In this document: piece by piece, positions 17,401 through 64,000 of the stretch
How the letters are laid out: every line of letters begins with the position of its first letter
Position numbering within the stretch: the first letter of the stretch is position 1
DNA from: Chrysophaeum taylorii
Taxonomy: Eukaryota; Sar; Pelagophyceae; Pelagomonadales; Pelagomonadaceae
Direction: 5' to 3'
Assembly: GCA_029834535.1 (NCBI GenBank)
Contig: JAQMWT010000524.1
Location: 558,001-622,000 of the forward strand
Length of the DNA: 64,000 nucleotides
Position numbers and translations under genes: made by a program
The notes under the pieces: generated by a model
Database searches by the model: none
What the model saw: the letters and a program-made list of their open reading frames with translations, nothing else
What the model was told of the DNA's origin: nothing

Positions 17401-17884
17401 GTTAAATACGCGTACTCGTGTCGTTAAGTGGGTGTCAAAAGATGATCTCCAGGATCCCACTAAATGGGAACCGCCGTCCCTATGCTTCCGCTTCCAAACG
17501 ATGCGCCGGACGGCTCATGCTTTTTCTGCTCCCCCGACAATCAAAAGTGGACGTTCCGCCGGATCCTGAACCTGAACAGGAGCCGAAAGTAAGGAGCGAG
17601 CCGAATGTGCGCGTCAAAGGTGAAAAGATCAATAAGAGCCACCCTGAGGTGAGGTTCAAATACGAAGAAAGTTCGATGTGCCATGGAAGGATGCGCCGCG
17701 CGATGCGGACGGTACCGTTACCGCAGATTCCGAGCACGTCAAGGACAATGATGCGATGAAAGTCAACCGACGAAGTGTTGAGAAGGTTGTTCGAGATCTA
17801 GGAATTCCGACAACCCGCATCTGGATGATGATGCGAAGATGATGTTGAGCCATTGCGTGCACGCGTGGGCTTTTTGATCCGATT
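14431..17884 (+). pseudogene. Degenerate gag-pol interior of Gypsy element
   Basis: About 3.4 kb with only short frames in all phases. By position it should hold the rest of gag, the protease and the start of RT, but I could not recognise a protease active site. Frequent small indels are likely. Confidence 0.4.
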
Positions 17885-26629: not shown

Positions 26630-26652
26630 GATGCCGAGACAGAGGGTTTCCT

Positions 26653-45747: not shown

Positions 45748-45775
45748 AAAAGGCGAAACGAAGTCCCGGGTCGGT

Positions 45776-46074
45776 CACTGCTCATGTGCACTCGCATAAC
45801 TAATAAAATTAAATTTTTTCCTACACAAGCCGCGGAAACTTGTACGGTATTTTTTTCCTTCCATTCCCAACAAAAGACTGACTGCTCGAGAATTAATCCA
45901 TTCTTCAGTCTCAAATCATCATGTTTAAATGGCTTATTGATTTGTTTGGTCTTGTAGATAAGCCCGCGCTTAAAATAGCGAACTGTACATACACATCCGC
46001 ATGTTATAAACCCTTCATTCGAACAAGTCAAGTGCTTTATCATTCCTTTAACCTACCTTTAGCAGGTCATAATC
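45776..46074. other. Leader or truncated LTR of element A
   Basis: AT-rich sequence between the broken end of the Copia (-) element and the gag start of element A. It should hold the element A 5' LTR end and primer-binding site, but I cannot identify either. Confidence 0.35.
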
Positions 46075-48100
46075 ATGTCAAAACCTAAGCCGATATCCAC
46101 TACGGATATCTATAAGCAGGAACAAATTCTCGTTGATAAGCTCAACGACGGTTTACGTTTCCAAGACAACTCAACTAAGGTCAGTTTGCAACTCGAAATG
46201 CTTCGTAGGCACATGACAAGCCCATACGCGGACGCGTTGTTCCTACGACGCGTACACGCGGAATGCCCCAGAATATAACCAGCTTCTCGAACACGAAGTT
46301 GATATCATTTTCTCCCAATGGAAATCCGAGAAAATCAACGAACTACATCTACCTAACGAAGATGCCCTGCCTGACCATCTCAAGACATGGCATGTAAATC
46401 ATACACATCAACTATCAGTCGATGCGCGTAATGATCTCGAACGACTTTTCTTTCAAGAGTCATTTAATCTTGTTCGACCCGAATTAAACGAGGATGTTAA
46501 ACGTGTCCTTACTCATTTAAACACCCGATTCCCTAAATCAATTGTGTATGATTCGTCTCTAACCAATATATCCTTCTCAGGTCTTTCTAATGCCGACTGG
46601 ATTAAACACTGCGAAACCTACGCGGGGTTTTTGTACACGTTTTTCAACTTGGAATCTCAAGATCGCCCTGCCCTCGCCATGTGGCCGCAGTTGAAGAAAA
46701 TCTACTCGTTTACGGCGCATCCTAATAAGACGCGCGCTCTTATGTTGTTATCTTATCATTACTATGAAACTGTATCCTGTACGGATGTCACTGAACTTAA
46801 ATCTCAATTCAATCGAATGTCCTTAAATGTTAATTGGTATGCTCATGTATTTGTCGAACAACTTCTTGCTTTCCAAACTCAGGCAAGTCAATTGAATTGC
46901 GACGAAGCATCAATTCAATTTAATGATTCCATAATCGCACTTAAAGCTCACGAAGAGCTTTACCGTCTTTGCGCAAATCCCTCTGACCACGAGCGCTACT
47001 CTCAGTCACTATTAGAATGGTGCAAACTTTACGAAACACGCTCGGGGAACAACTCGACTCGCGATCCTGAAGTTTTAAGGCTAGTTGATCCCAATGATGT
47101 TCGCCCGTTATTGGAGTCCTTGTTAACGATATACAATGAGACGAAATTCTCCTCTAACCGACGCTTGGACAAACCCGCATCATGGATTCCATATATCCCT
47201 GGTACTACCGCTACCAAGCCACCTAAAGTATTACTGATGGACACCATTCATCAGTCCCACGACTCTCTAAACAACGCTTATTCATTGTTAGCTACCGTCG
47301 CTGGACAGTCTGGCTTTAATGCTCGTAAGCTTCGTAACGCAAAAGATAAAGCGTCGACAATTTCTTCTCGAGACACGTCCTACTATCGCCCACCTTCTAA
47401 TTATAATGTCAAAGGCACCAGTTTTGATCGTCCTGTCTACTCACAATCCACTAATCGCAACTCACGCTCTAATATGTCACTAATGGATCGAGCTACTTAT
47501 CAAGTAGACCGTCTTCGCCATCTGTTTAGTAAGTTACAGGAAGCAAATCCCAATCCTTCTACCGATTCTAAAATAGTACAAGAAGAAATGAAGAGGTTAC
47601 TAAGTACCCTCTGGACCACTGCTTCTCAAGCTTCTACACAGACCCTCGATACAGAAGAAGCCACCCAAGTTCACCTATACCTATCACGAGCCGATACAAT
47701 GTCCAACACCATCTCGAATCTTCTAGAGACAGATAAAGAGTCTCACATGGTAGAAGAAAAGGATCAAGTTGAAACTTCTGCTCCTGCAGCGTCCCCCAGT
47801 GATGCGGAGCAGAGGGGGGCTGCTGAAACGGAAAAGATGTTTCACACTTTTCTATCTATCAAAGATGATGAAATCGATAATATTCCTCAACCATTACTGC
47901 AACACATTAATGCTAAAGCACAGAATGCTATCGTTCGTCGTCAAGCACGGGGAGCTTCTTTTCACTCTGAGCTTCCCAATAATCAACATAACGAAGAAAA
48001 CGAGGATGATACAGATCCCCCTGTGTTGCTCCTGAAATTAAACAATGGTTTTACACTTGTCGTGGTACCTTCCGAACAAACGCAAAGTTTCATGACTTAG
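46075..48100 (+). pseudogene. Element A gag, one frameshift
   Basis: Starts 'MSKPKPISTTDIYKQEQILV' and shares sequence with the gag fragment at 38.2-38.7 kb. A one-base shift near 46242 separates 46075-46278 from the long frame that ends at 48100. The long part (518 codons from 46544) is helical, with an acidic, Gln/Asn-rich C-terminal region; I see no CCHC knuckle. It ends at TAG, after which protease continues in the same frame, which may be decay or stop readthrough. Confidence 0.75.
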
Positions 48101-48103
48101 TAT

Positions 48104-48805
48104 GTGTTTGGTCAAAGTTCTACACATGCTTGTTATGCAACAATGCTTAAACTGTATAATGAATACAACTTACCATTAATGACTACACCTGGGTATGCAG
48201 ATACGCGCGCTTCTCAACATGTGGTTAACTTTAAACGTTACGCCGACCCACTGCATATCGTTAAACTGCCCGAATCCTTGTCACCCGCCATCCAGACGGC
48301 TACAGACACCCAAAGTATCACACATGCAATGATAACAAGAAGAGGCATTCCTGCTCTTCCAAAGCATCCTAACGTTGGATATGTCAAGCTGGATGTTGCT
48401 CTTTTCCTACCCAAACAAAATCAACAAAACGAACCTGATTTGCACATCATCAGCATGACTCAATGGGGAGAAGACAAACTTGGTATACATCTCTATGGGG
48501 TTGAGTTTAAAGGACAATCATCTATCCAGAGCAAGATTGACGACAACGTCAAGATTACTTTGTTTAGATTAAACAATTTGTTACCTTCTCTCCCAATCTA
48601 TTCGTTACAGCAAGCTAAAGCTCGAAAAATGGAACTACGCTCTTTACAGTTCCGATTGAGTGCTTTTAACGAACAACGTGAGATGCTTAAACTATATTCC
48701 AAACTTCTCGAACGTGTAATTTACGTCCCGTGGTTTAAAACCATTTTGGAGTCCATGCACTCACAGTTGCCTTATGTTCGCAGACATTTCTCACCTCCTG
48801 TATGA
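48104..48805 (+). pseudogene. Element A protease region
   Basis: 234 codons. The aspartic protease active site is recognisable as 'YADTRASQHVVN' (Asp codon at 48200), in the place of the Copia D-S-G-A-S; the Gly is replaced by Arg, which would probably inactivate it. The rest is an extension without known motifs, with 'SLQQAKARKMELRSLQFRLS' as a likely helix, ending in TGA and followed in frame by the DNMT. Confidence 0.6.
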
Positions 48806-51092
48806 CGCAAGTTTAATACACGCTTGCTCCTTACTGTAACAACCACTTCTAATTCACGAGTACCGACTGTAACTCTACTTTGCTCCGGGATGTCCACTCC
48901 TGCATTCTTGGCTTGTGCTTCCAATGACTTGCGAATCAACATTAACGTTAAAGTTCTTAATGAAAGCGATGAAAATCTTGCGCATATGCTACGAAGACGG
49001 ATTGGTAATTCCATCGAAGTGTTTCCGTCACTACCAAAGTTCCTCACCTATCTGCATCGAGCATCGGGTGCTGAACGTGCATGATACTACTCTGACATTG
49101 TGGAATTGACTTCCCCATGTACTAATCGTAACATAATCAATGGGAGATCTATATCAACTTCCGAGCGAGATATGGACGACTCTTTATTTCCAAGTGCTCT
49201 AAGTGTACTTGAGCTTTTAAAGCCCCTTGTTCTTTTTATGGAGATGACACCACCACACTCTGCATCATATGAAGATCATATACGAGTTGCTAACCTGATC
49301 TTCTCCACAATGCATTACACGGTGGACATATGCGATCGCTTTCCATGTTACTTGTGTGGAGATTATCAAGCTAGAGAAAGATGGATCCTCGTTGCTCGCA
49401 AATATAATACCGGCCCACTAGATTTGCTTTCTTGGCCCAAAAAGCGAGTTACTTCCTTCCTGGACATTGCGGATCATGTTAACTCCATAAGTCGCAAGTT
49501 AATTGTCGACGAACCCTGGACACAGGTCTTCTCGGATGTACCATTCGTTTCCATGCCCAAAACTTACAGCAGCTTCAGTCGCACAGGATCCGTTCGCCTA
49601 ACAGTTGCCGAGCTAGAGACAATAACCATGCTGTTCCTCCGTTTGCATTCATATAAAACTAACCCTGCGATCGCTAACCGTTGGTTGCGATGGAGGACGG
49701 CGCCTAACACGCTTGCTCCCTGCGGCGGCCCCGGCCGTCCCGGAGTGAGACGGTGCCTGCTCGCCTCCCGGGCTGGCCGGTTAGCACCCGGAAAGTCCGC
49801 GCTGGGATGGGGTTCGCTCGGTTGGGCAGAACGCGACGGACAGGTCGATTGTTCGTGGACCAACACGTTTGCGGCCTGCGACGCTCTTGCACGACTTCGC
49901 ACAAGACCGCGCGCAGTGGCGGCCCGTCATCAACGAGTCCTCGTCCCTCGCCTCAGCCCCAACTGCGTGATTTTCCTCTGTGATTCCGGATCGGCTCCTG
50001 CCTGTCCGGCCTGGCTCCCATGCTCGGGAGAGGTCTGAAGTTAGTTAGTTAGTTAGTTAGTTAAAACAATCGAACACCCAAGTCAAGACGAAGTGGGGGG
50101 CATTTCTAACTTTTGCCAAGGATTCTTAACGTATTCAAGAAAGCCCCTTACGTGTATGACTTCACCTATTGAACTTAAGGCCTTTGTTATCCTCTATAAC
50201 ACTATGGAGCGCTTGTTCCCAAATTCCACTACATTACCTGTGTCTTTTCGTATTACAACTATCGAATCTAACCAACCATCTCACAGGTTATTTTTAAACA
50301 AATCCTCTACTTTCTCCATTATCTACATCACTGGCGGAAGACATACAGGTAGAGACATCACAGTTTCTAACTCCTCCTCTAAATACCAGGCACACATAAG
50401 TGCATTTGGGGAAACCTACATCTTGCAAACACATGAAACAGGAATTGATAAGACTGCTTCCCTCAATCCTGTTACCGGTTTTCTTTGGTTATGCCAAGCT
50501 TACCACCATCATAATGAAACCCAAGACACCTGTCGTCTCGTGCAAACACTGGTCTCCTACACTTCACCTGTGCTTCATGGCTCTTTCAATTTCCATCCCT
50601 AGACAAATCATCTTGAGTTTATCGATAGAATCTTTGCTTTAAGTGACATGCATCTGTCTCAAAGCAGGTACCTTGGCTTCATTACATCTAGTGACAGAAA
50701 GATGGGCGCCAAAGTTCATTCTATTCACACACCAACTCCGACTATTCTTGGATTTACGAACATGATCCTTTACGATCCACGGCTTGATCGCATTCGACAC
50801 TACTCAACTCGTGAACTGGCACGCGCCAATAACTTCACAGCGTACCAAATTAATTTTCTTCTGTATTTGTCCCCGGACCTTTGCTGTGACATAATTGCTA
50901 ATGCTATTCTGGCTGGAACCTATCATGTAATTTATACACAGTTGTGTCAGCTTGTCTATGATTTGCGTAAATTAACGTTATCACCATCTTTCGACCCTGA
51001 TCATGCTTCTCTAACCAAAAACTATAGGACAACCTTTTTCACTAACATGTTTCCAGCTGACACATCCTTAATATTAAACCAGAGTTCTATCA
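48806..51092 (+). pseudogene. Element A C5-cytosine DNA methyltransferase
   Basis: One reading frame carries the ordered motifs of C5-DNA methyltransferases: motif I 'VTLLCSGMSTPAF' (48869-48907, SAM binding), motif IV 'DIVELTSPCTN' with the catalytic Pro-Cys at 49115-49120, motif VI 'LFMEMTPP' (Glu at 49241, where ENV is usual), motif VIII 'YQARERWILVAR' (49364-49399), motif IX 'STRELARANNF' (about 50804-50836) and motif X 'IANAILAGTY' (about 50893-50922). Family knowledge: Cys attacks C6 of cytosine, Glu of motif VI assists, VIII-X form the target-recognition flank. The SINE at 49660-50061 splits the variable target-recognition region; its length plus TSD is 408 bp, so the frame is kept. 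In-frame stops at 49082 (TGA) and 50600 (TAG) make this copy inactive unless read through. It lies between protease and integrase. Confidence 0.82.
49660..50061 (+). mobile_element. SINE-like element, copy 4 (in the DNMT)
   Basis: Full-length copy, TSD TAAAAC at 49654-49659 and 50062-50067. Removing it with one TSD restores the DNMT frame. Confidence 0.85.
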
Positions 51093-51646
51093 ATAACTAA
51101 CTAACTAACTTCAGACCTCTCCCGAGCATGGGAGCCAGGCCGGACAGGCAGGAGCCGATCCGGAATCACAGAGGAAAATCACGCAGTTGGGGCTGAGGCG
51201 AGGGACGAGGACTCGTTGATGACGGACCGCCACTGCGCGCGGTCTTGTGCGAAGTCGTGCAAGAGCGTCGCAGGCCGCAAACGTGCTGGTCCACGAACAA
51301 TCGACCTGTCTTTAAATGTCGACTGCTAAGAGGGGGGGGGTGTGTGTGGGGAGCATGAAGGATGTGGGTGGGTTTGTGGGGTATGAGGGATGTGCCTGAC
51401 GGGCGGAGATAAGTACGCGGGACCTAGTCGGGGTCATCGCCGAGGCCTGCCTCGAATCGACCTGTCCGTCGCGTTCTGCCCAACCGAGCGAACCCCATCC
51501 CAGCGCGGACTTTCCGGGTGCTAACCGGCCAGCCCGGGAGGCGAGCAGGCACCGTCTCACTCCGGGACGGCCGGGGCCGCCGCAGGGAGCAAGCGTGTTA
51601 GGCGCCGTCCTCCATCGCAACCAACGGTTAACGATCGCAGGGTTAG
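51093..51646 (-). mobile_element. SINE-like element, copy 5, containing a LINE fragment
   Basis: Reverse copy with TSD GTTCTATCA at 51084-51092 and 51647-51655. It is itself split by a LINE-like piece at 51311-51454. Excision of 563 bp restores the host frame. Confidence 0.88.
51311..51454 (-). mobile_element. LINE-like 3' fragment nested in SINE
   Basis: 144 bp with the family 3' end (on + TTTAAATGTCGACTGC) and TSD AATCGACCTGTC at 51299-51310 and 51455-51466: a third level of nesting. Confidence 0.85.
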
Positions 51647-53905
51647 GTTCTATCACAGTGTTATACATTTCTAATGAAGCATTCCAATGTTGTGACAACC
51701 TCTCCTCCAACCACGAACTTCCATTGTTTCATCTCGATTCAGTAGCCCATGTATTCATGTCTAACATCTCATCCGTAGATGAAACATCTACTTCCCAAAC
51801 TAAAATGAAACACATTCCTCTCATAACTCCAAGACAGCTACATGAGAAACATGCTTCTTTTGACAGAAAAGTACATGCCAGTGGCACTCTAGCTTTTCGA
51901 GATGCCCAGAGACATGCCACAAATTTTCACAACATTCACCATTCTAGTGATTCTCAGGCTATAATAGCTGTTCAGGTCATTGCCAGCCCGGGACATCATC
52001 CCTCAGATGTGCCCTACCGTAATTTTTTGTGTGGATTGTACCTTACATAAAGTACGTTTTCCTCACCCACATCATCTTACCAAGCAACCTTCATTTGAAA
52101 AAGTCTTTCAACCTGGTGAAGCCTGGGCATGTGATGGTGGTTACGTATCTGTCCTATCCGAATGGGGCTCTTTTCGCCACATTTTAGTTTTCAAATGTTT
52201 CATCTCTAAATTTTTGTTGGTGTACTTTTGTCGTACTACTAATGCTAGTGAATTTTGTAATGCCCTCGAGTTTGTTCGCAATTTTTGCTCCACCTATGTT
52301 CATGTACAATCAAAACAAATTTATTGTGACTCTTTTAAACCCTATTTATCTCAACACGTTACCACTCCCTTCCGTGTTGAACATGGCATTAATATGTCTG
52401 CTTTCCCTCCCTACTTACATGTGTTTAATCACGAAGTAGAAGCCGCTGTTGGTCATATAGCAACTGCTGCGTGTACACGACTCCGGCATATGCTTAATGT
52501 ATCCTATAAAGGTCACCGCCTAACAGATCCGGCACCACACTACCCGTGGGCTGTTATACATGCTATTCAATCGTACAATCTCCTCCCTAATGTCTCTCTC
52601 GAACGCATTTATAATAAAGTCCTAAGCCCCCAACAAGTTTTGTTGGACCAATGTAATGTTCCCCAACAAGACTACCTCAAACATTTTGGTTCTGTTTGTT
52701 ATTTGCATCTAAAATCTAATAAATTTCACAAATATGAACCTCGATGTCGTCCCTACATCTACTTATGTGGCGCTAATGTTATTAACCCTTTAGTCACACC
52801 CCATGTTAACCACTTAGCTGATGTTGTCCTCAATCCTGAGAACGGCCAAGTCCGTGTCTCTTCTAAACTTACCTTTCCTCATCTCACTTCTAATTCTCCT
52901 CCCGATTACGAACAACATCCCCCACCTGCACCTTCACCCGAAATACCCTTTTCTGTTCAACGCACCCCCAGTGATGCGGAGCAGAGGGGGAATGCTATGT
53001 CCAACGACATTGAACACGAGAGGGGGACTCCTTCACCCCTCGCACACGCTCCTACTCCCGTTCCCGCATGTGCTCCCGCTGCTTCTGCACCCACTGCTTC
53101 TGTCGCCACACCTCCGGCATCTGAAGTGTCATCCACCACTTTACCCATTTTACAATCCTATCGGTCCCTCTACTCCCAAGATGTCCTTCGTCTCACCCGC
53201 GGTCCTAATCACCCTCAGCCTCGTCGCAAGACCAATCTCACGGCTGTTCTCACTCGTATTGCTTCACCAACCGTTGCCGCTTATAAACAAGCTGGTGGCA
53301 CGCTTGCTGACTTCAAGTATGACCTCTCCAAGCAGTATATAACTTTCTGCGACCCCACCCTCCACTCCCTTCATATTGCTCACGGCATCCACTGGATGGC
53401 TATGCCTCCAGAGGGGGAATTTACACAAACTCTTCATCATCATGTTCACCAAGCGCTATTCCAGTCTTCTTCTGGTATGTGTCATAGTAGCCTTAACCAT
53501 CCGTCGGCGGATGCCACTCTTGTTCATCTCCTCGACGACTTTAGCTTCTCGGACCTTCACCTTCCTCGCGCTCTTGTTCATCTAATTTCTGAACACGCCC
53601 ACGCTTTTCGAGTTCCTCCCGCTCAATATGCCTATGCTTTGCTCACGCCTCATTCCAGTTTGGATCATAATGATGCTTCCTATGGTGCCTCCGAGCCTCA
53701 CCTCCCCGCCATTGAAGACTACATCACTGTGCAGTCTCATTACATTGATGCACACCTTGGAGATGACCCTCTACTAGTTATTCAACTTGTCGAAGATCCA
53801 GATCCCGATCACACTAACGCTATTGTTGATTCTTACACGATCATCCACCTTACCCATGCTCAAGATCCCAGCACTGTTGGTCCGGACGAATGTAAAATTC
53901 AAAGC
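51647..53905 (+). pseudogene. Element A integrase region
   Basis: Frame 51595-52050 continues after the SINE ('SITVLYISNEAFQCC', 'LITPRQLHEKHASFD'), then a shift leads into 51980-53923. Zinc/pre-integrase remnants 'CTLHKVRFPHP' precede the core: first Asp in 'WACDGGYVSVL', second in 'IYCDSFKPYL', Glu in 'NHEVEAAVGHI', an atypical but ordered D-D-E triad, followed by 'LKHFGSVCYLHLKSNKFHKY'. A Pro/Thr-rich linker leads to the RT. A frameshift lies near 53895. Confidence 0.72.
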
Positions 53906-55715
53906 CAAGGATATCAAGATTGATGAATATGAGTTGACCCGCCTCAAAGGTCTTTCTGAGGCTGACCGTAAGGCTTATATCTCCGCGATTTCTAAGGAGA
54001 TTTTTGACATTGTCAAGTTTGGCTGCTTTAAACTCTCGTTGCCTATGGTCAACTCCAAGCCCATTGATACCCGACTGGTATTACGAATAAAAACCAATGC
54101 TGCCGGCGAATACATCAAACATAAAGCGAGACTGGTCCTACGAGGATTCTTAGCTTCCCTGGGCACCGACTTTTTAAACACATTTAGTCCAATGGCGCAG
54201 CTCACCGGTATCCGTTGTGTTCTGGCGCTCGCAGCCCACCTCCGACTTCCCGTCTACCACATAGACGCCCCTAATGCCTTTGTTCAAGCCCCGATAGACT
54301 CTCATGTCTACGTTAAATTGCCACAAGGTATTCACCTACTTGATCCAGAAGATGCAAAATATCAAGGACGACGTCTCCCAAAACTACTTAAATCTCTTTG
54401 TGGATTACGACAGAGTGCTGCTCTTTGGAACTAAACCATAAATGGTTTCTTCGACACGCTAGGCTATAAACGCTTTCGAACAGATACACGCATCTATGCT
54501 AAAGTCCAATCCGATGCTACGTTTTTACTTTGTACGCTATCAGTGGATGATGTTGTTATCATCTGTACATCGGAAAGTCTACGTCGTGAATTCCAACAAG
54601 CCATGAAGAAGGAATACTCCGTTGAAAACTTTGAAGAAGTTCATACTCTCTTAGGTATGCGCATAACTCGCACTACCGATGGCTCCATCTCACTTGACTG
54701 CCAAGCTAAGATTGATGCATTGTTTGAAGAGTATCCCATCTTAACGCAGTTACGTCCCACATCAACTCCTATGTCCCCTTCAACTACATATAAAACTGTA
54801 GAGCCATCTTCTGATATGAAAAGTTCATCCAACACATCTTCTCCACCTTACTTGGCAAGCTCACTTTTGTACAGTTGGCCTGTCGCCCTGATTTATCACA
54901 AAGCCTCAGTCGCTGTTCCCAAGGAATGCATAATCCAGCGTATTTGCATGTCCAAGTATTACAGGAACTCTTCGCTATTTGCGCAAGCCTGAAAAACGCA
55001 ATCTTCGACTATGGTACTACTCCGGTTCTTCCGCTCTAATGGACCATCTTAGATTTCTCATCGGCAATCGTACCGATATGGCAACCATGCTGGATTACAC
55101 TAAAGAACAAGTGGATTCAGATAATTTTGATCCACTGGTCGCGTTCGTCGATGCTGATAATGCACCCTCTTATGAACAAGATCGCAAATCTACAACTGGT
55201 TATGCCATCTTTTTATTTGGTTCCCTCATCACTTGGAAGTCCAAACTACAGCCTATCACAGCTACTTCCACGCATGAGAGTGAACTTATTGCCCTTAATA
55301 TGTGTGCTGTTGACGTGGTCTGGTTACGTAACTGTTAACGGAAATGGCTTTTGCTATAAACCCGCAATACTATCTTCGCCAACCTCCAGGGAAAGATTTG
55401 TTATTAGATTATGATGCATATGACAACCCTCTCCCATCCGACATGTCATTTATGCGCAACAGTTCTATACTTGGAGACTCTGCTTCTGCTATCCATCTGT
55501 CAAATAATCCTGACAGTGCGACCAAAGCCAAAGCCATTAGCACACGCTGGTTTCGTATTCGTGACTATGTGCACCTAAGACGTATTCGCTTGCACCATGT
55601 TTCTGGCACCAAAAATATCGCTGATGGATTCACTAAACCCTTTGGTGCTCCTCTTTTCACTAGATTTCGCACGTTACTTGGTTTACAACAACCCATAGCC
55701 CAGCAAGATGCTTAA
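53890..55715 (+). pseudogene. Element A reverse transcriptase - RNase H
   Basis: Closely related to the RT at 36.2-38.1 kb (minus): 'TRLVLRIKTNAAGEYIKHKA', 'YHIDAPNAFVQAPIDSHVYV', 'KSLCGLRQSAALWN', then an in-frame TAA (54432-54434), then 'TLSVDDVVIIC' (both catalytic Asp kept), 'HTLLGMRITRTTDGSISLD', and after frameshifts near 54.9 kb the RNase H part 'AFVDADNAPSYEQDRKSTTG', 'ATSTHESELIALNMCAVDVV' and 'LGDSASAIHLSNNPDSA', ending 55715. Broken by one stop and at least two frameshifts. Confidence 0.82.
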
Positions 55716-56448
55716 TCATCACCCTTCACTATGTCCGCAATGACATTAAACTAGCCCTCCTGGAAAACGGTAATTGTGGCTCGCTGAAAACATAAAAAAA
55801 TATGAAGGTCTCCATAAAATGAATCCTGCCAAGACCAAGGATGCCGCGAGCCGAGGTTACTCAGTATTGAATCGTGGACGCGGTGGCATTTCTGCACTGT
55901 CCTCACCGTTTAATGCTTTGAACCCAGGACTTGCCCCTACTGGTTCTCCCAATAGCCGTAAACACCAAACATATCTTTCTGTTGCTCAAGGAAATAAATC
56001 CCCCCCAGTGACTCCTACGTCACGATCAAATCAACATAATCTTTAATATACTAACTCTCATGTTAAAAGCACAGAGTACTATCTGTTAAAGCACTGCAAA
56101 TTCGATGTTATGGCGATGATGTCTGGGAGCGTTCTTTCGCTTGGTACTCAACCACCAATTTTTTTGCTACCGTCACCTAAGGATCCTCAATGTTGGTATC
56201 AGCCCAGCCAACAGCTGCTTACTGGCGCACAACAAAACAACTGCATTGATAATCTTCATTTCTTGAGTTCCCTCCTGTGTCTAAAGACCAAACGTGTGCG
56301 CAATGCGCCTAATGTACCGGTAAATGAGGGTATTCGATTGCATCGATACCCACCTATTAAAGGCGTTGTCAAAGTCCATGTAATGTGTACCAAATGTTTT
56401 AATAAAACCGACGCACCGGGTACGCAGCTTGTTCTCGCTATCTTATCT

Positions 56449-56522
56449 TAACTACTAATCGACAGATGTTTGTCTGTCTGTCTGTTTGTTTGTCTTTAAA
56501 TGTCGACTGCTAAGAGGGGGGG
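56449..56522 (-). mobile_element. LINE-like 3' end with tail
   Basis: On the minus strand only ~30 bp of the LINE 3' end remain, followed by a (GACA/AACA)n tail and CATCTGTCGATTAGTAGTT. The same left flank and tail occur at 26653-26712, also abutting the Helitron-like segment. Confidence 0.7.
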
Positions 56523-56777
56523 GGTTGTTTGTCCCTCGATTTAGGGTAAGGATCAGGTAGGCGCGAGAGTAAGGACCAGGTAGGCGCGCGAGCCAGACAG
56601 TGACCAAGCCGTCCGCGGCGACCTCGCAGACTATTTCCACGACCCGCGGCGGCTCTTTCAGCGCGCCATTCTCACGCCCCGTCGAAACGATGTCGAAATG
56701 ATGTTGTCGATGCTGACAACGCGCGCGTGACCGCGGCCTTTTTTTCCCGGAGACGAGGCGTCGGAGTTCTTTGACTA

Positions 56778-57063
56778 GGTTGGGTCGGAAGACGACGCTT
56801 CGCCCTCAAGAGTCGAGTTTTGAACTCCCTGACAACCAACGGCATGCTGACTTTGATCGCGAGCTTAATGTCTTCGCAACCTCGACCCGTCGCACGGCCA
56901 CTGCAACGGTACCAGATATAGGTTGGGTCGGAAGACGACGCTTCGCCCTCAAGAGTCGAGTTTTGAACTCCCTGACAACCAACGGCATGCTGACTTTGAT
57001 CGCGAGCTCAAAGTCTTCGCAACCTCGACCCGTCGCACGGCCACTGCAACAGTACCAGATACA
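56778..57063 (+). repeat. 143 bp tandem duplication in helicase remnant
   Basis: Units 56778-56920 and 56921-57063, starting GGTTGGGTCGGAAGACGACG; near-identical, so recent. Not present in the copy at 27.7 kb. Confidence 0.88.
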
Positions 57064-57335
57064 TGATCGATCGTGTCGTTGTCACCGAGGCTCCTCCAGC
57101 CTGTATCCCTTAAGGCCCGCCGACGCCAAACGATCAGCAAGAGCCAGGGCCAGACGCCCCGCGAGGTCGGCGTCCTCTTGGCGAAGCCCGTCTTCTGCCA
57201 CGTCCAGCTCTACGTGGCTCTCTGTCGATCGGCAACCCCGAGGATATCCTCTTCTTGGTCGACGACTCCACCCTACTCCACACGTGCTGCGCAATACCGA
57301 TAAGCCCTCTCCCAGCGTCTACACGCGCACTATAG

Positions 57336-57648
57336 GTTAACTTACTGGGACCAGGTGAACTTACTGGAACCAGGTGAACTTACGGAGGTTAGAGATTGGG
57401 ACTAGGTGAAATTAGTGACCAGGCGAACTTACTGAGACCAAGTGAACTTACTGGGGTTTTTAGAGTAAACTCAAAGGTTAGCGGCGTGTGCGGATCAAAG
57501 CAGCTTAGATTGGCGGGGGTGACGGCGACGAGTTCAAAGGAAAGTGGATGTGAGCACGAGTGGGTTTACGCCGAATTTACTGGGGTTGGAGATTGGGACT
57601 AGGTGAACTTAACGGGGACAAGGTGAACTTACTGGCCTGCACTTGTTT
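57336..57648 (+). repeat. GTGAACTTACTGG motif cluster, second copy
   Basis: Same degenerate motif array as 28371-28687, ending in the same GGCCTGCACTTGT. Confidence 0.8.
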
Positions 57649-59013
57649 GAACTGAAGACGAAGTTAAAACGGACAAAATTGTCAAAATCATCGAAGAACA
57701 CTTGTCATCAGAACAACATGCCTCGCACTGCTTCGATGTGCCCCGTCCAATTTTCCTTTTGATCTGCGTTATGTGTAACCTGTCACTACATGGGACAGCC
57801 TTAACTAGGAATAGTCTTCAGTCGTTTCATCTTTCATGCCACAATGACCCAGCTGCACATATGCGAGCCATCATCCTACGCTTGGGCAAGTCTATTCCAA
57901 TAAATAAGATGCTCAAAGATGCGCTCATTAAATGTATGGCTACCCACAATCTTAATGCTTCTGACATAATAGTGAACCCAGACGACCATGCACCCCTTTT
58001 GCTACAGCTACCTCATATCTCGACCGTTAATGTTGAAATCCTTGTAACGGCTTGGTCATTACTACAGTCCGTCGAAGATATAAAGTCCGCATTGTTACAA
58101 ACCCGGATGAGTTGCTTGCTGTGCTCATTGAAGGTTTCGCTAATGATGTTTCTCACCAGCCTAATGATACTTCTCACGAGATGTTACCGCCAATGTTGGA
58201 CTACTTCCTTAAGTTAGCCCCAGAGCATCAAACTGCTTTTAAAAATGTACTTATCCAGGTTGGTTATCCCTCTGCCATAATAGACGCATTCTCAGACACT
58301 AAGTTGTCTGAGGGTAAACCAGCACAGTTGAACCTACGACAGTAGAACATACTGACAACGTGCATGAAACTTTGCGACAGTTAAGAGAAGAAATACAATC
58401 TCTATCTTTGCATATCGCCAAGAGTGATAAGCAATCTATAGAACGAGATCAACGACTTTCTGATGCCTTGGAAACCACAACTCAACTCAAAAATGCTAAC
58501 GATACCCTTAACGCGCAAGTGACCGAGAACATCAAGCACGTATCACTCTTAGACAACATACTTTCCAGCTATCAAATGCACCAGGATACTACATTGTCTA
58601 CCCTTGCTGTCTTAGCTCATGTGATTTCTAAGTCACTTATCACTTCTATTGAACAGTCTCCTCCAAATACTTTTGAGGAGGCACAGCAAAACATAATCGA
58701 CGATACAGCTGCTAGCTTACATACTGCTATGTCTGATGCACAGGACCATGTTATTCGCGCAACAGATCTGCACACCTTAACACCAGCTGCAGCTATGTCC
58801 TATTTGTCTTCTGTCATGTCACCACTTGTTGCTCTCAGCGATGCAATCACTATAAATAATGCTTCTAACGACCAATCCGAAGACCATGACTCTTCCTCTC
58901 CAGAATTAAAGAAACTTGAAGACAATAGTGATGATGAGTTGGACCACACATCTGATGCTGTGGATGCTGTTTCTCTACGCAATGTAACAACACGTCCAAC
59001 TTCCTCCTCCTAA

Positions 59014-59728
59014 CATTAATTGTTATGTTGCCTTCTCCTTTATGTTGTTGTTTTATGTTTAAGTTAGTCGCTGTTCTCATGTATCGTACACAAGCTTCAC
59101 ACTCAAGAACGTCTGGAAGGCATAAAGCCTTTCACACGTCGAGGGGGTCCAGAGCGCTACACTATAATGTGTACGACACTGGAACTCCTTACTCCTTTCA
59201 CACCTTTTTCTACTTGAGGGTTTTCTCTCCGTAATACGGCTTTCCCTCTTTCCTTCCTTACCCTTCCGCAATTATTTATTTCATGACAATGAGAATCGTC
59301 TGAAGCTTTCTACCAACATGGAGTAGGCCTCCAGGTGCGTACCGTCAGGTACGGGGTTTTCTGTTTAATTAACAGAGGCTTCGTTCCTCGTTGTCAGTGT
59401 AAACGCTTCTATGGGACTTAATGTCCTTAAGGAGCTAGGGCCTAAATCCCTACTAGAGATAGAAAATCTGAACTAGGGTTAGTACCCCCTGTTCTAGGGT
59501 TAGTTCACTTAACTTTGCCACCTTTGGTTTAAGAAAACGCTGTGTTATTCACACCGGCTGTCCTCGATTAAGAGACAGATTCGAGGACAGACTACCACTG
59601 TTCTCACACTCTGCTGAAGGGTGACCCAGTAATCATTACTGTTCTCTAGGTATTGGGCACCAGTCCCGGTATCAGCAGAGTCCCAGGATTTCCAGACAAG
59701 TCAAGTTCACTGACGTTCCTGAACCAAA
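59014..59728. other. Junction region: element A 3' end and element B leader
   Basis: Contains the CGAGGGGG purine tract and the 39 bp sequence at 59148-59186, then ~500 bp without coding potential before the gag of element B. LTR edges cannot be set. GGTATCAGCAGAG near 59669 resembles, with a mismatch, the initiator-tRNA primer-binding site used by many LTR elements. CTAGGGTTAGT occurs twice near 59474 and 59493. Confidence 0.4.
59148..59186 (+). repeat. 39 bp sequence shared with 42256-42294
   Basis: Identical to 42256-42294. Here it directly follows a purine tract, so it is probably the first bases of the element A 3' LTR. Confidence 0.6.
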
Positions 59729-61435
59729 ATGCCGACGAACCAAGAACGCCAGAAGGAGATAAGAGAGCAAGAAGCCCGTATAGAAGCCAAGTACCAAAGA
59801 GACATGCAACAGCAAGCTCAAGCGTACGAAGCTCGGCATAAAGAAGAGATTTTAGACCAAGAAACTCGCTTGATGGCACAAATAAGCGCTTTGTCCACCC
59901 AAGTGCAAGCAACGCAAGCACCACCACCTGCCGTCGCTGCTGCGACTCCGCCTCCCACTCCGGCTCAACAAGATCCCAAGTCTAAGGTCAACACCTTTAG
60001 TGACCCCCCTAGCGCCGTCCTCAAGTCGATGGACAACGCTCAAGTCACACCCCAAATGCTTTCGTTTCGTGTCATGCAATTGTTCGTCGAACATCTGATG
60101 CCTGAAACAGGTATAACTCAGTACTTCCTACAGGGCTTCTACACGTGGGAATCCGTCCTGCGCGGATCTAACGATCTCGCTGACGCTCTCCTAAGCCACT
60201 GTATCGACGAATACGACAAGGACCCCGACAACCACTCTACCGCCGGGAACACGCAAAATTTCCAAGGCCGTCACGTCTACTACAAGGGTGTCTACCGCAA
60301 GTTCGGCAAGCACTTCCTGGACAACGTCTACGAGCCAAAACTGCAAGAACTCAAAGATCAATACAAGGACCCAACCGATATGACAAAAGGCAAGTTGTAT
60401 CCAATAACTCGACCACCTCTCCAAGGAAAAGAAGCCGACTTCATCGTATATCACCGCGAGACTGTACACCCCCTATTTCGCCGTTTCCTACATGCCGGTG
60501 GCGACTCCGTCAAGCACCCAGCGTACGACGAAATCGACGCACTCGAATCCTCCTACCCAATAGGACTCGAATTCGTGCTACAAGTTCGCCTCGCACTCGA
60601 TAAGCATACGGGCCAAAACCACATCCATCATGCGCATTAGGTTTACAATGCCTTTCTGGACACGCCGTTCAACCCTGAAATCCATGAGCCAGCTCACTAC
60701 ATCGATTACATGCGTCATGTCCAGCAGCAGCTCCGCCAGATCACCACGGACGCTTCTCTCCAACTTCCCGACGACAAGATCCTCGAAGAAATTCACCAAA
60801 ATCTCCGCTTCAAGTACCCCCCAAGCTTACTTGACTCCCGCGCCCCAACACACATCAAGGGCTTTGCACGTCTTGCTAACTGTTTGCGCACTCCCAGCGA
60901 TTCGCTGTTACTCGACGAAGACAAGGACGCCATCCACCACCTTCCTAAGCTCATCGCTCGCATTACCGTCATTTCAACATTCGAGCTCAACTTTTGGGCT
61001 CACCTCAAGCCCCACCCCACCCTTAACTTCAAGCCCTTGCGCTTCGTTACGGACTTTGGTCGTCTGCCAACAAAGGACAAAGACAACCCACGCTTTCGCT
61101 CCCGCCGTCATGGTCTCCACCTAACCGAAGACGATGATGAAACCTCTCCCTGTGAAGACGAAACCCCACCGGACCCCACTGAAGCCACCGACCCTGTCGC
61201 CGTTTTCTCACGGAAGCCAACCTTGATCAAGAGGAAGACAATAACCCCATTCACCAACTGCGCGCCTACCGCAAGAAGCAAATTTCGCGTCACGTCAAAA
61301 AGCCCCCTCCAGGCAAAAAGCCGCCTAATCCTCGCTCCCCGTCTTACTACGACGTCAATGACAGTCCTAAACCCAAGGCCACCCCTGTCACCCCACCGAA
61401 GAACACCGTCCCCGCGCTCCTCCTGTCTCCTCTGA
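59729..61435 (+). pseudogene. Element B gag
   Basis: Starts 'MPTNQERQKEIREQEARIEA' with a coiled-coil N-terminus, an Ala/Pro-rich spacer, and a helical capsid-like region. A single in-frame TAG (60638-60640) splits 59729-60640 from the continuing frame ('VYNAFLDTPFNPEIHEPAHY') that stays open to 61435. Beyond a frameshift near 61270, 'KKPPPGKKPPNPRSP' and, at 61611-61922, a very acidic tail ('DDQPDEDDAETDDQED') probably belong to it. It is not alignable by eye with element A gag. Confidence 0.65.
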
Positions 61436-62115
61436 CAAACGCGAACACCCGCATCTTCGAAAGGCCACCTTCCCAACACAACCTCATCCACCCAAACCGT
61501 CTACTCCAGACCAACGCTTCAAGGTCCCCCTTCGTGAAGTTCGTCGCAAACTCCAAACCATTCGCAATCTTAGCCAAGCCGGTCGCCAACATACGTGCAG
61601 CTCCGAGCATATGAACAAGCTCATTAACCTCATCACCACCATTTCCGACGAGGTACTTCTTTCCGAAGCCGAAGCTGACGCCGCCGAATTTCTCCAGATG
61701 TTAACGCCCGATCCCCAAGATGATCAACCTGATGAAGACGACGCCGAAACCGATGACCAAGAAGACAAAGGACATCTCGGCTTCCATGACGACAAAGGTC
61801 AGCTAGACCTCTACGCCGACGCCATTCCCGAAACCCAAGATGAAGAAGACTCCGCCGAAGCCTACGCCAAACGTCACAATGACTACATGCGTGCTCTCCA
61901 CAAGAGTCGGCTTTTTCCCTGATGGTTGCCGACGACGCCTGTGCCGACAACCACGCCTTACTTCATCAGGCACCAAACCTCCAGATGATGAATTTCCCGA
62001 CTTCATCCATTATCTCGACACGAGTCGCAGATTTTCTTTGTACCACTTACACTCCAGACACGACCTCAAAGAAGACTAGCTCCCTGCACGGATGCAATGC
62101 AATGGCCCCGGCACA
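61436..62115 (+). pseudogene. Element B gag C-terminal acidic region
   Basis: Frame 61611-61922 ('MNKLINLITTISDEVLL' then Asp/Glu-rich) with upstream open sequence 'FKVPLREVRRKLQTIRNL'. A small shift near 61920 leads towards the protease. Confidence 0.5.
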
Positions 62116-62760
62116 GAAACCTCATTGATTGACGGTGGCGCATCATTTTTGCTTTACGCGCACAATTCAAAATTTTGTTCCCGAGACCATCCGCCGAATT
62201 CCCGAACATACTATTCATATGGGACGAGGCACTCTTACCAGTCACTTTATCGGCGTTAAACCGTTGTATCTGCAGGCTGCAGGTCTCTCTTCAAAGGATG
62301 CACAAGACAACACAGGTTACGTATTATATCTCGTATTTATGGTAGTCCCGCAATTTCGACAAGGTCTTCAAGTTATTGCAACATCCCAGCTTAAAGCTCT
62401 GCATGTACAAGCAACAGACCCGCCACTGCCTCACGAGCCCTACCTGTATGAGCTCTTAAAATCCTCGACCTCAGACCCCCACAATTACGCCACACTTCTA
62501 GGAAAGACCGCCGTCGTACTTGCCGCTCGCAAGCCTAACGGCCTGTTGTCCCTGCCATCCCATCCCCGGCAAACATTCGCCACTGTGGTTAGCTTTCACA
62601 CACGAAAACGAATGTCACTCCACGATGAGATTGCACACATCACACGGCATGTCGCAAAGACACGCTCACAATCGCACACGCTTGACTTCGCGAAGTTACA
62701 AAACCATTCCATGTATCTTACCGCACTGCTCAACATCAAATCTCCTGTCGTCCACTATGC
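62116..62760 (+). pseudogene. Element B protease region, frameshifted
   Basis: The active site reads 'SLIDGGASFLLYAHN' from 62122 (D-G-G-A-S, Copia usually D-S-G-A-S). A +1 shift follows and the frame 62129-63067 gives 'GRGTLTSHFIGVKPLYLQAA', the strand after the protease flap. The sequence then runs into a helical linker before the DNMT, as in element A. Confidence 0.65.
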
Positions 62761-64000
62761 CTTCAATGGCTCCGCAGACCTCTCTGTGCAAACACAAACC
62801 CCTCTGCTCAAAACAGCCATTATTGCCGGTGGACTTCACCAGGAAGGTTTCGACATTTTTCGCAAACGACACGACAAACGCCTAACTGTCGTAGTTACCT
62901 GCGAAATCAACGATATCCTGCGCACCCGTGCGCAACACCTCTTTCCGCATGCCACGCACTATGCGGACCTCAGAAAACTCAATGCCGCACTCCAAACCGG
63001 CAAAATAAGACTCCCTACATTCGACCTCGCAGTTTTTACATTGCCTTGCCAGCATCCGAGTGAATGAAAGAATACGACGGTTATGACACTCCGGTCACCG
63101 CCGACCTCTTTGTCAAATAACAACTCCGCTTCGTTCGTTGCACGCTCCCGACTTATACTAACTAACTAACTAACTTCAGACCTCTCCCGAGCATGGGAGC
63201 CAGGCCGGACCGACAGGAGCCAGTCCGGAATGACGGGCCTGTAGACGAGGAGCGCCGAAAGGTCGGTCGGCGGAGAGTGACCATCAAGCTTGTCGCCATG
63301 CGACGAGGAGACCGCGATGTGACCGACAACCAACTCGTCGATAACCTTCCGTCTTCGCCCCCCGGCCATACCCCGTCCCACTGCGAACGTTCCGGCTGCC
63401 AACCGGCCCGTCCGGGAGGCGAATAGGTGCCAACCTACGCCGGGAGGGCGGATGCCCTCGCAAGGCTCAGGATTCATGAGGCACCGTCCTCCATCGCAAC
63501 CGCAGTCGGCGATCAGGGTAACTTATACCATTGTCGAGAACGTCCCTCCCAACCCCCGAACTCACCACGAGTACGCTCAACTCGCCAAAGGTTATCAGCG
63601 CTTAGGCTACTTCCGCCTTTCCGGCGTCTACAATGCCTCTGCTTTTGGTGATGTCATCAGCAAGACACGTTATCTAGCTGTGTATGCCCGGCACCCGCTC
63701 ACCGGCTACACCCTCGAGAAAACCGCCTCCCCTTGGTTAACCTCGCCTCCGAGCATGGTTCATCTCCTGGATCCCAGTCCCACCATCCCTGACGATCTCT
63801 GGATCGCCAAACCCGTCCTTCGTGGTACAGTGCCCCGTTCTACATTGGACTACTACCAGCACAAGGCCACCTACTCCTACAAGCCCGCAAACGCCTCGAA
63901 ACTCTCGATTTCCGAGAATGCCCGCATCTGCCAAATGCTCGCACGTCTCACCAAGCCCTTCACGGATCTCGGTTTAGATGCCGACGGCACCCCCTACGCC
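62761..64000 (+). pseudogene. Element B C5-cytosine DNA methyltransferase (runs off the window)
   Basis: Motif I region 'LLKTAIIAGGLHQEGF' (62803-62853), motif II-like 'LTVVVTCEIND', then 'HYADLRKLNAAL' and motif IV 'FDLAVFTLPCQHPS' with catalytic Pro-Cys at 63044-63049. After a stop, a frame change and a TAA (63118), the SINE at 63159-63520 interrupts. The other side continues in frame with motif VI 'YTIVENVPPN' (Glu at 63536) and motif VIII-like 'GVYNASAFGDVISKTRYLAV' (63624-63683), open to the window end. There is no start codon in the last part, so it is easy to miss. Motif spacing matches known C5 methyltransferases. Confidence 0.75.
63159..63520 (-). mobile_element. SINE-like element, copy 6 (diverged)
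   Basis: TSD ACTTATAC at 63151-63158 and 63521-63528. Its middle differs from the other copies, so it is older or a different subfamily. Removing 370 bp makes the two DNMT halves meet in frame. Confidence 0.8.

What the first reader, a model, noticed from the sequence alone, without database searches (positions are those of the whole stretch)
48806..51092. A retrotransposon that carries its own C5-cytosine DNA methyltransferase (element A)
Six DNMT motifs occur in correct order in one frame between protease and integrase of a Copia-type element. I recall published reports of DNMT genes taken up by retrotransposons in a dinoflagellate and a charophyte alga, so the principle is known, but this lineage and architecture may be new. 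A self-encoded methyltransferase could mark new copies or hide them from host silencing.
Basis: partly seen in the sequence, partly recalled or inferred. Interest (0 to 1): 0.92.

Follow-up and report, generated by a model that had tools for sequence, protein, structure and literature searches.

The report
Retrotransposon carrying a DNA-methylating enzyme
A jumping gene of a marine alga carries its own diverged DNA-methylating enzyme, kept almost unchanged by selection in many copies, so the parasite may mark DNA itself rather than rely on its host.

Summary
48806-51092 encodes a diverged C5-cytosine methyltransferase (DNMT) domain between protease and integrase of a Ty1/Copia-type LTR retrotransposon. 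The host is Chrysophaeum taylorii, a pelagophyte alga. The window copy is dead: a private TGA, two SINE-like insertions, a TAG, a truncated 5' end, and a second retrotransposon inside its 3' LTR. At least 150 matches exist in the genome; 125 of the 150 listed have no stop in the tested stretch. PF00145 alone is weak (E 0.042, under cut-off). Other evidence is stronger: phrog_116 matches 8 of 9 copies, best E 4.3e-4; a profile comparison scores 35.9 against a shuffle mean of 14.1; catalytic Cys and Glu are kept in 14 of 14 insertions; Ka/Ks is 0.04, as low as integrase and RT. New here: the DNMT opens Pol directly behind an in-frame UGA kept in 14 of 14 insertions, suggesting readthrough. Two further retrotransposon families with pieces in this window carry DNMTs: Copia-type B and Ty3-type C, at least 150 matches each. 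Retrotransposon DNMTs are known from dinoflagellates and Klebsormidium; this is a new variant. Activity and self-methylation are inferred.

The parts
45768..59453 (+). Element A: Ty1/Copia-type LTR retrotransposon, 5' end truncated, 3' LTR interrupted by element B
   Evidence: In 6 of 10 loci homology to the window begins at 45768; LTR homology in the copies corresponds to 59148-59453
46075..48100 (+). gag region; frame damaged near its 5' end, stop at 48098-48100 in this copy (open there in L012)
   Evidence: no Pfam match over cut-off; Ka/Ks 0.08 between subfamilies, 27 pairs
48101..48802 (+). Aspartic protease region (ADTRASQH, motif recalled)
   Evidence: no Pfam match; Ka/Ks 0.03, 49 pairs
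48803..48805 (+). Conserved in-frame UGA followed by C, between protease and DNMT; candidate readthrough stop
   Evidence: 14 of 14 distinct insertions keep it (19 of 19 locus rows)
48806..49659 (+). DNMT catalytic half, motifs I, IV, VI, VIII; private TGA at 49082-49084
   Evidence: PF00145 E 0.042 for 49085-49657, under cut-off; phrog_116 in 8 of 9 copies; profile comparison; Ka/Ks 0.04; catalytic residues
49660..50061 (+). SINE-like insertion with TTAG-repeat tail that splits the DNMT
   Evidence: Absent from this site in 10 of 10 loci; flanks share a short direct repeat
50062..51092 (+). DNMT target-recognition and C-terminal part with motifs IX and X; TAG at 50600-50602 in this copy
   Evidence: phrog_116 match in L009 spans residues 97-542; motif IX-X end resembles family B, shuffle p 0.002; Ka/Ks 0.10
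51093..51646 (-). Second SINE-like insertion, inverted relative to the first
   Evidence: Inverted repeats I1 and I2, 99%; flanking repeat GTTCTATCA
51647..52900 (+). Integrase
   Evidence: SH3_retrovirus E 2.3e-4 and rve E 0.018, both under cut-off; Ka/Ks 0.05, 39 pairs
53859..54989 (+). Reverse transcriptase, Copia type, interrupted by a stop in this copy
   Evidence: RVT_2 E 7.9e-24 and 6.7e-9, both over cut-off
54985..55714 (+). RNase H region (motifs recalled)
55774..56441 (+). 3' open frame X, function unknown
   Evidence: Found in 4 other copies (C242, C428, C54, C641); no Pfam match
57651..59013 (+). 3' open frame Y, function unknown
   Evidence: Shared with other copies; no Pfam match over cut-off; Ka/Ks 0.14 between subfamilies, 9 pairs
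59148..59453 (+). Part of the 3' LTR of element A
   Evidence: complete LTR about 405 bp in two other copies
59454..64000 (+). Element B: a second Copia-type retrotransposon with its own DNMT, inserted in A's LTR, running off the window
   Evidence: Homology to L046, L022, L024; PF00145 match in relatives; at least 154 matches
16255..18323 (+). Relic of family C: DNMT upstream of a Ty3-type reverse transcriptase
   Evidence: 92.4% identical to L047; DNMT and RT tests were made on L047

Best explanation
Element A is a Ty1/Copia-type LTR retrotransposon whose Pol begins with a C5-cytosine methyltransferase domain of about 600 aa: a catalytic core, an enlarged target-recognition region, then motifs IX-X. 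The order is LTR - gag - protease - [UGA] - DNMT - integrase - RT - RNase H - two 3' ORFs - LTR. Most translation ends at the conserved UGA and yields Gag-protease. Occasional readthrough yields the DNMT-integrase-RT fusion in small amounts, so the DNMT should enter the particle together with RT and integrase. There it would methylate the element's own double-stranded cDNA, or the new copy at integration. Methylated copies could then be kept in a tolerated state by the host's DNMT5. Shown: the architecture, homology, intact catalytic residues, conserved stop, copy number and strong purifying selection. Inferred: readthrough, packaging, enzyme activity, and self-methylation with its benefit. 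I hold the domain identity at about 0.95, catalytic activity at about 0.75, and self-methylation of cDNA or new copies at about 0.45.
For: Identity: phrog_116 'DNA methyltransferase' (which also matches the host DNMT2 and DNMT5) in 8 of 9 copies at E up to 1, best 4.3e-4, and in a sister subfamily A' at 46% identity, E 0.0013. An HMM built without A from families B and C and the host DNMT2 and DNMT5 scores five A domains at E 0.0014-0.34 among 603 ORFs. hhalign of A+A' against two such sets gives E 2.2e-4 and 2.7e-4 with motifs in register; raw score 35.9, 200 column shuffles mean 14.1, 1 of 200 reached it, reversed profile 16.2. Catalysis: in 14 insertions Cys(IV) 14/14, Glu(VI) 14/14, Gly(I) 14/14, Pro(IV) 13/14, Gln(VIII) 14/14; the two Arg 13/13 and 12/13, one insertion without letters there. 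Selection: Ka/Ks between subfamilies is 0.04 for the catalytic half (53 pairs) and 0.10 for the rest (53), against integrase 0.05 (39), RT 0.07 (39), RNase H 0.03 (16); the IN-RT linker inside Pol is 0.20, its first half 0.34 (28 pairs each). So the DNMT is kept for its sequence, not only as an open spacer. Mobility: at least 150 matches; two complete copies, both with 5-bp target duplications, GGTGG and ACTCC. The primer site GGTTATGRGCCCAG fits half-tRNA(iMet) priming (recalled); its complement pattern occurs 581 times against 6 for the backward control. Stop: UGA-C in 14 of 14 insertions. Host: DNMT5 E 3e-143 to 7r76, DNMT2 E 3.9e-39 to 1g55.
Against: PF00145 never reaches its cut-off for A: window piece E 0.042, full copies 1 of 9 at E 0.2; a genome-wide PF00145 search at E up to 10 (123 of 474 candidates scored) lists no family-A place that I recognised. 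NCBIfam and PDB sequence searches find no DNMT for A. hhalign's own probability for A against DNMTs is only 41-45%. One of 200 column shuffles scored higher than the real comparison. Motif VI reads EMT, not the usual ENV (recalled). Pairwise A against B over the catalytic half is not significant (p 0.63), and the first A-B profile comparison found nothing. CpG o/e of A is 0.91-0.95, against 1.23-1.30 in two host stretches and 1.10 in a piece of another Copia, but other stretches of the window reach 1.14 and 0.97 and GC content differs, so this is weak. No stable RNA fold follows the UGA (z above 0 in 14 of 14). The two dated insertions have LTRs about 5 and 8% apart, so current activity of A is not shown.
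Confidence: 0.6

Rival explanations
1. The domain methylates RNA, not DNA: like DNMT2 it acts on a tRNA (perhaps the initiator tRNA that primes reverse transcription) or on the element's RNA.
For: C5-MTases can be RNA enzymes (DNMT2, DNMT6: passages in PMC12344493). The element appears primed by tRNA(iMet). No strong CpG depletion.
Against: A shows no significant pairwise likeness to the host DNMT2. Three retrotransposon families of this genome carry a DNMT, and two published SymbioDIRS DNMTs methylate DNA at CG (PMC5890265).
Confidence: 0.15
2. The enzyme acts on the host side: it methylates host or rival-element DNA or protects cDNA from nucleases, rather than self-marking for tolerance.
For: Three DNMT-bearing families share one genome. 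The selection data fit any useful activity.
Against: A DNMT inside Pol, behind a UGA, points to action in the particle on its own cDNA (inference). No direct evidence for rival-targeting was sought or found.
Confidence: 0.2
3. The domain has lost catalysis and is kept as a nucleic-acid-binding or structural part of Pol.
For: Sequence is very diverged; motif VI is EMT; PF00145 is below cut-off.
Against: Cys, Glu and QxRxR are kept in 12 to 14 of 14 insertions and in the 46%-identical subfamily A'. Ka/Ks of the catalytic half is among the lowest of the element.
Confidence: 0.15
4. It is another SAM-dependent methyltransferase or an unrelated domain that mimics the motifs by chance.
For: Only weak single-sequence matches; hhalign probability under 50%.
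Against: The annotated Pfam and PHROG matches of A name a DNA methylase or methyltransferase (one further PHROG match, E 0.39, has no known function); profile test with shuffled and reversed controls; motifs IV, VI and VIII in register.
Confidence: 0.04

Closest known systems
KnitGypsy-Dnmt3 (Klebsormidium nitens; PMC5890265, Results read)
   Same: DNMT inside the Pol polyprotein of an LTR retrotransposon, under purifying selection
   Different: Gypsy not Copia; a Dnmt3 relative; charophyte host. Here Copia, DNMT first in Pol behind a conserved UGA, not placed in any DNMT clade
SymbioDIRS-Dnmt3 and SymbioLINE-Dnmt (Symbiodinium; PMC5890265, Results read)
   Same: Hundreds of retrotransposon DNMTs in one genome; several families at once; most Ka/Ks under 0.2
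   Different: DIRS and LINE elements; the same paper says Symbiodinium Copia elements lack a DNMT. Here two Copia families and one Ty3-type family
Statement in PMC12344493 (passage)
   Same: One sentence says DNMT3 members sit in 'LTR Copia and DIRS' elements of streptophytes and dinoflagellates
   Different: It cites the 2018 paper, which reports Gypsy for Klebsormidium; 'pelagophy' and 'Chrysophaeum' do not occur in its main text
ParB + N4C/N6A methyltransferase of Sola1-1_Ec32 (Ectocarpus; PMC12477816, passage)
   Same: A transposon accessory DNA methyltransferase in an alga
   Different: DNA transposon; 4mC or 6mA type, not C5
Drosophila copia and other Ty1/Copia elements (recalled)
   Same: gag-PR-IN-RT-RH order, 5-bp target duplication, half-tRNA(iMet) primer site
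   Different: No DNMT; here also two 3' ORFs and a UGA between protease and the rest of Pol

Membership tests
C5-cytosine DNA methyltransferase (PF00145 superfamily) | Match to the family model over the curated cut-off | tested here: not met
   Family A: 13.7 bits against 22; 1 of 9 copies, E 0.2. Members of families B (38.6 bits) and C (25.3 bits) pass
C5-cytosine DNA methyltransferase (PF00145 superfamily) | Remote homology above controls | tested here: met
   phrog_116 8 of 9, best E 4.3e-4; hhalign E 2-3e-4 at 41-45% probability, 1 of 200 shuffles at or above
C5-cytosine DNA methyltransferase (PF00145 superfamily) | Motif IV Pro-Cys, motif VI Glu, motif VIII QxRxR | tested here: met
   Counts over 14 insertions; also in A'
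C5-cytosine DNA methyltransferase (PF00145 superfamily) | Fold and methylation activity | not testable with these tools
   Structure prediction switched off; activity needs the bench
Ty1/Copia LTR retrotransposon | Integrase upstream of an RVT_2 reverse transcriptase | tested here: met
   (RT over cut-off; integrase matches under cut-off)
Ty1/Copia LTR retrotransposon | LTRs with 5-bp target-site duplications | tested here: met
   2 of 2 copies examined for it
Dnmt3 clade (as in published retrotransposon DNMTs) | Placement in a DNMT tree | not tested
   No homologue scored for A or B, and no Dnmt3 reference was at hand
Stop-codon readthrough gag-pro/pol | Conserved stop with the same frame on both sides | tested here: met
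   14 of 14 UGA-C
Stop-codon readthrough gag-pro/pol | Downstream RNA stimulator | tested here: not met
   No stable fold in the next 80 nt (66 in L015), z above 0 in 14 of 14; pseudoknots not tested

The most novel reading that the evidence does not exclude
In this alga the retrotransposons supply the de novo cytosine methylation of the genome. The only DNMT genes that I could assign to the host are DNMT2 and a DNMT5, the latter known elsewhere as a maintenance enzyme (recalled; a title to that effect seen in a reference list). Three retrotransposon families (Copia A, Copia B, Ty3-type C) each bring a DNMT. A mark first laid by the parasite on its own copies and then copied on by host DNMT5 would make retrotransposons a source of the epigenome.
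Probability: 0.15. Interest if true: 0.92.

Novelty: new variant of a known kind. Interest (0 to 1): 0.7.

Why it matters
It extends retrotransposon-borne DNMTs to a stramenopile and to the Copia superfamily, with three DNMT-bearing retrotransposon families in one 71-Mb genome. Such recurrence suggests that carrying a DNMT is useful to a retrotransposon. The setting makes the open question 'what is it for?' testable: the only DNMTs assigned to the host here are DNMT5 and DNMT2, and strain NIES-1699 grows in culture (passage in PMC10366177). Copia elements without a DNMT would have to be identified first as controls; I did not test for them. The conserved UGA ahead of the DNMT also offers a concrete expression mechanism.

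Tried and rejected
Led nowhere: protein-database searches for A and B DNMTs (no match at E 1e-3 among 7998 and 2060 scored candidates); viral-contig scans; phmmer/hmmsearch of A against PDB sequences; pairwise shuffle tests of the catalytic half, too weak even for B, whose Pfam match is over cut-off; the first A-B profile comparison, too few distinct sequences until subfamily A' was found; RNA fold after the UGA; first initiator-tRNA pattern, 0 matches, the looser one gave 581. Self-matching for LTRs inside single loci failed because the element is 11-12 kb. No Rfam match in the window.

Considered and rejected: the UGA as mere decay (kept in 14 of 14); re-initiation at the overlapping ATG (it is in another frame, and C572 lacks it); DNMT kept only to keep Pol in frame (Ka/Ks far below the linker).

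Full report
Host and setting. The window is part of contig C524 (668,995 bases) of a 70.8-Mb, 697-contig genome (length). A carotenoid isomerase in the window (25076-26650) is 99% identical, over 77% of its length, to 'hypothetical protein CTAYLR_000734 [Chrysophaeum taylorii]', whose contig has the same length of 668,995. The host is therefore C. taylorii, a pelagophyte. Its genome paper (PMC10366177, passages only) reports 71 Mb on 702 contigs; 'transpos' and 'copia' do not occur in its main text.

Anatomy. Element A occupies 45768-59453. Pieces of the other copies line up with it. Two copies looked complete: one on C54 (about 12 kb) and one on C523 (about 11.2 kb). Their LTRs are about 405 bp, start TCCAGAG or TCTAGAG, end CTCCA, and are flanked by 5-bp duplications GGTGG and ACTCC (boundaries read by eye from the printed flanks). 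LTR pairs are 94.9% and 91.6% identical, so these two insertions are not brand new. The sequence after the 5' LTR, GGTTATGRGCCCAG, is complementary to the anticodon arm of initiator tRNA (recalled), the half-tRNA priming of Drosophila copia. Its 13-base core pattern occurs 581 times in the genome against 6 for the pattern read backwards; I did not sort these by element family. Reverse transcriptase is RVT_2 over cut-off. Downstream of RNase H lie two ORFs shared with other copies, without a Pfam match over cut-off.

State of the window copy. It is dead. Its 5' end is cut at 45768, next to a minus-strand Copia element. The DNMT has TGA at 49082-49084, a SINE-like insertion at 49660-50061, TAG at 50600-50602 and a second, inverted SINE-like insertion at 51093-51646. 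A second DNMT-bearing element (B) starts at 59454, inside A's 3' LTR.

Copies. A search with the 191-aa stretch 49085-49657 lists 150 matches (the cap; 887 first-look candidates). 125 of the 150 show no stop in that stretch, 25 do (my count of the rows). I examined 14 distinct insertions closely: the window copy and 13 others. About half of these were picked for long open frames, the rest for high rank, so they are not a random sample.

Is it a DNMT? Pfam alone would leave doubt: E 0.042 for one window piece, under cut-off, and 1 of 9 full copies at E 0.2. NCBIfam is silent. PHROG phrog_116 (DNA methyltransferase; it also matches the host DNMT2 and DNMT5) matches 8 of 9 copies at E up to 1, best E 4.3e-4; in L009 the match runs from motif IV to motif IX across the long insert. 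A sister subfamily A', found in L014, L039 and L040, is about 46% identical to A. Its L014 member matches the same models (PF00145 E 0.09; phrog_116 E 0.0013); the L039 piece matches only phrog_116, E 0.3. Motifs I, IV, VI and VIII are among the unchanged runs of the A-A' alignment. Profiles of A+A' against sets with no A in them (families B and C, host DNMT2 and DNMT5) give hhalign E 2.2e-4 and 2.7e-4 with motifs in register, though at a reported probability of only 45% and 41%. The raw score is 35.9; 200 column shuffles average 14.1, s.d. 2.9, with one at 37.5; the reversed profile scores 16.2. An HMM of that reference set was run over 603 six-frame ORFs of the window and loci (real DNMT ORFs included) plus five A domains: the A domains came at E 0.0014-0.34. 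The ORFs ranked above the best A domain lie in B loci or host DNMT loci, or, for the seven of them that I opened, are family C pieces or A'.

Is it kept by selection? For pairs of insertions from different subfamilies (C572 counted apart; synonymous distance near 0.9 in the DNMT) median Ka/Ks is 0.04 for the catalytic half (53 pairs), 0.10 for the TRD and C-terminal part (53), 0.05 for integrase (39), 0.07 for RT (39) and 0.03 for RNase H (16). Within subfamilies the catalytic half is at 0.11 (38 pairs, maximum 0.32). The linker between integrase and RT, in the same open frame, is 0.20 and its first half 0.34 (28 pairs each). The catalytic half read in the two wrong frames gives 2.2-2.3 (40 pairs each). 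Catalytic Cys, Glu and Gly are present in 14 of 14 insertions; Pro is R in C641; the last Arg is T in C572.

The conserved stop. In every distinct insertion examined (14 of 14), UGA-C separates protease from DNMT, in the same frame, even in the diverged C572 copy. In L009 to L014, L016 and L018 long open frames begin directly behind it. No stable RNA structure follows (z above 0 in 14 of 14); pseudoknots were not tested. The simplest reading is stop-codon readthrough that keeps DNMT-IN-RT scarce relative to Gag-protease.

Two more families. Family B (window 59454-64000): 7 of 8 aligned members match PF00145 at E up to 1, best E 9.8e-10; the one shown in full scores 38.6 bits against a 22-bit cut-off. 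Seven of the eight were fetched with that very model, so this count is not independent. Its RT is Copia type (RVT_2 E 9.3e-39) behind the DNMT end and integrase in one frame. A B query lists at least 154 matches. Of the 57 PF00145 matches at E 0.001 or better, two are the host DNMT2 and DNMT5; of the other 55, 53 overlap a listed family-B place or lie within 700 bases of one on the same contig (my comparison); C23:3967 and C670:66519 do not and were not examined. A and B reverse transcriptases are 33% identical; each is 27-28% identical to the minus-strand Copia of the window. One acquisition in a common ancestor of A and B is thus possible but not proven. Family C (L047; relic at 16255-18323 in the window) has a DNMT with PF00145 E 1.2e-5, over cut-off, followed, in the next overlapping frame of L047, by an RT nearest to Ty3 (4ol8, E 1e-10; Pfam gave no RT match for this truncated piece). 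It has at least 150 matches, some 99-100% identical to the query, so C looks recently active. L048 (C260) is a diverged C-like DNMT by eye.

Host enzymes. DNMT5 (C621, E 3e-143 to 7r76, named there 'DNA repair protein Rad8'; that this entry is Cryptococcus Dnmt5 is recalled) and DNMT2 (C634, E 3.9e-39 to 1g55). Weaker or unassigned PF00145 matches, among them C57 at 22.7 bits, C23 and C670, were not examined, and a Dnmt1 or Dnmt3 split by introns could have been missed, since the search is frame by frame.

Mechanism. The position inside Pol and behind a conserved stop predicts packaging with RT and integrase, and action on the element's own cDNA or new copy. De Mendoza et al. 2018 (Results read) showed that two SymbioDIRS DNMTs methylate CG de novo in yeast; their KnitGypsy and SymbioLINE enzymes gave no signal, which they call inconclusive. 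Here CpG o/e is 0.91-0.95 in A, 0.98-1.15 in B, 1.10 in a piece of the minus-strand Copia (no DNMT seen in that piece), 1.23-1.30 in two host stretches, and 1.14 and 0.97 in two other stretches of the window. This is a weak hint only, because GC content differs.

Novelty. Ten literature searches, over open PMC papers only, gave no listing, and the papers opened gave no passage, that describes a DNMT-bearing retrotransposon in a pelagophyte. One sentence in PMC12344493 (passage) speaks of 'LTR Copia' elements with DNMT3 in streptophytes or dinoflagellates, citing the 2018 paper that reports Gypsy. I recall that Iyer et al. 2011 surveyed retroelement-linked methylases; I have not read it. I therefore file this as a new variant of a known kind.

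Noticed in passing
window 59454-64000; genome-wide: Family B, a second Copia-type retrotransposon with a DNMT; a member passes the PF00145 cut-off. It sits inside element A's 3' LTR; at least 154 matches in the genome.
   Followed up: partly
window 16255-18323; L047; G000 contigs: Family C: a DNMT just upstream of a Ty3-type reverse transcriptase, at least 150 matches, some 99-100% identical, so probably recently active; open frames up to 3067 aa.
   Followed up: partly
L014 2259-3647, L039 755-1369, L040 3913-5302: Subfamily A', about 46% identical to A in the DNMT, with the same motifs; in L014 its frame runs on into an A-type protease region, as if recombined or deleted.
   Followed up: partly
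window 48803-48805 and copies: An in-frame UGA-C kept in 14 of 14 insertions between protease and DNMT; possible readthrough signal without an obvious downstream stem.
   Followed up: partly
window 55774-56441 and 57651-59013: Two 3' ORFs after RNase H shared with other copies, without a Pfam match over cut-off; Y has Ka/Ks 0.14 between subfamilies (9 pairs).
   Followed up: partly
window 49660-50061 and 51093-51646: Two SINE-like insertions with TTAG-repeat ends, 99% alike in the shared arms, in opposite orientation about 1 kb apart inside element A; no tRNA gene found in 45000-60000 by ARAGORN.
   Followed up: partly
L020 (C621): The host DNMT5 lies in one open frame of 2086 aa and has a close PDB relative (7r76, E 3e-143).
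   Followed up: partly
window 56442-57650: Another insertion with a 143-bp tandem duplication (56776-57061) between the two 3' ORFs; parts of it recur inside another A copy (L010).
   Followed up: no
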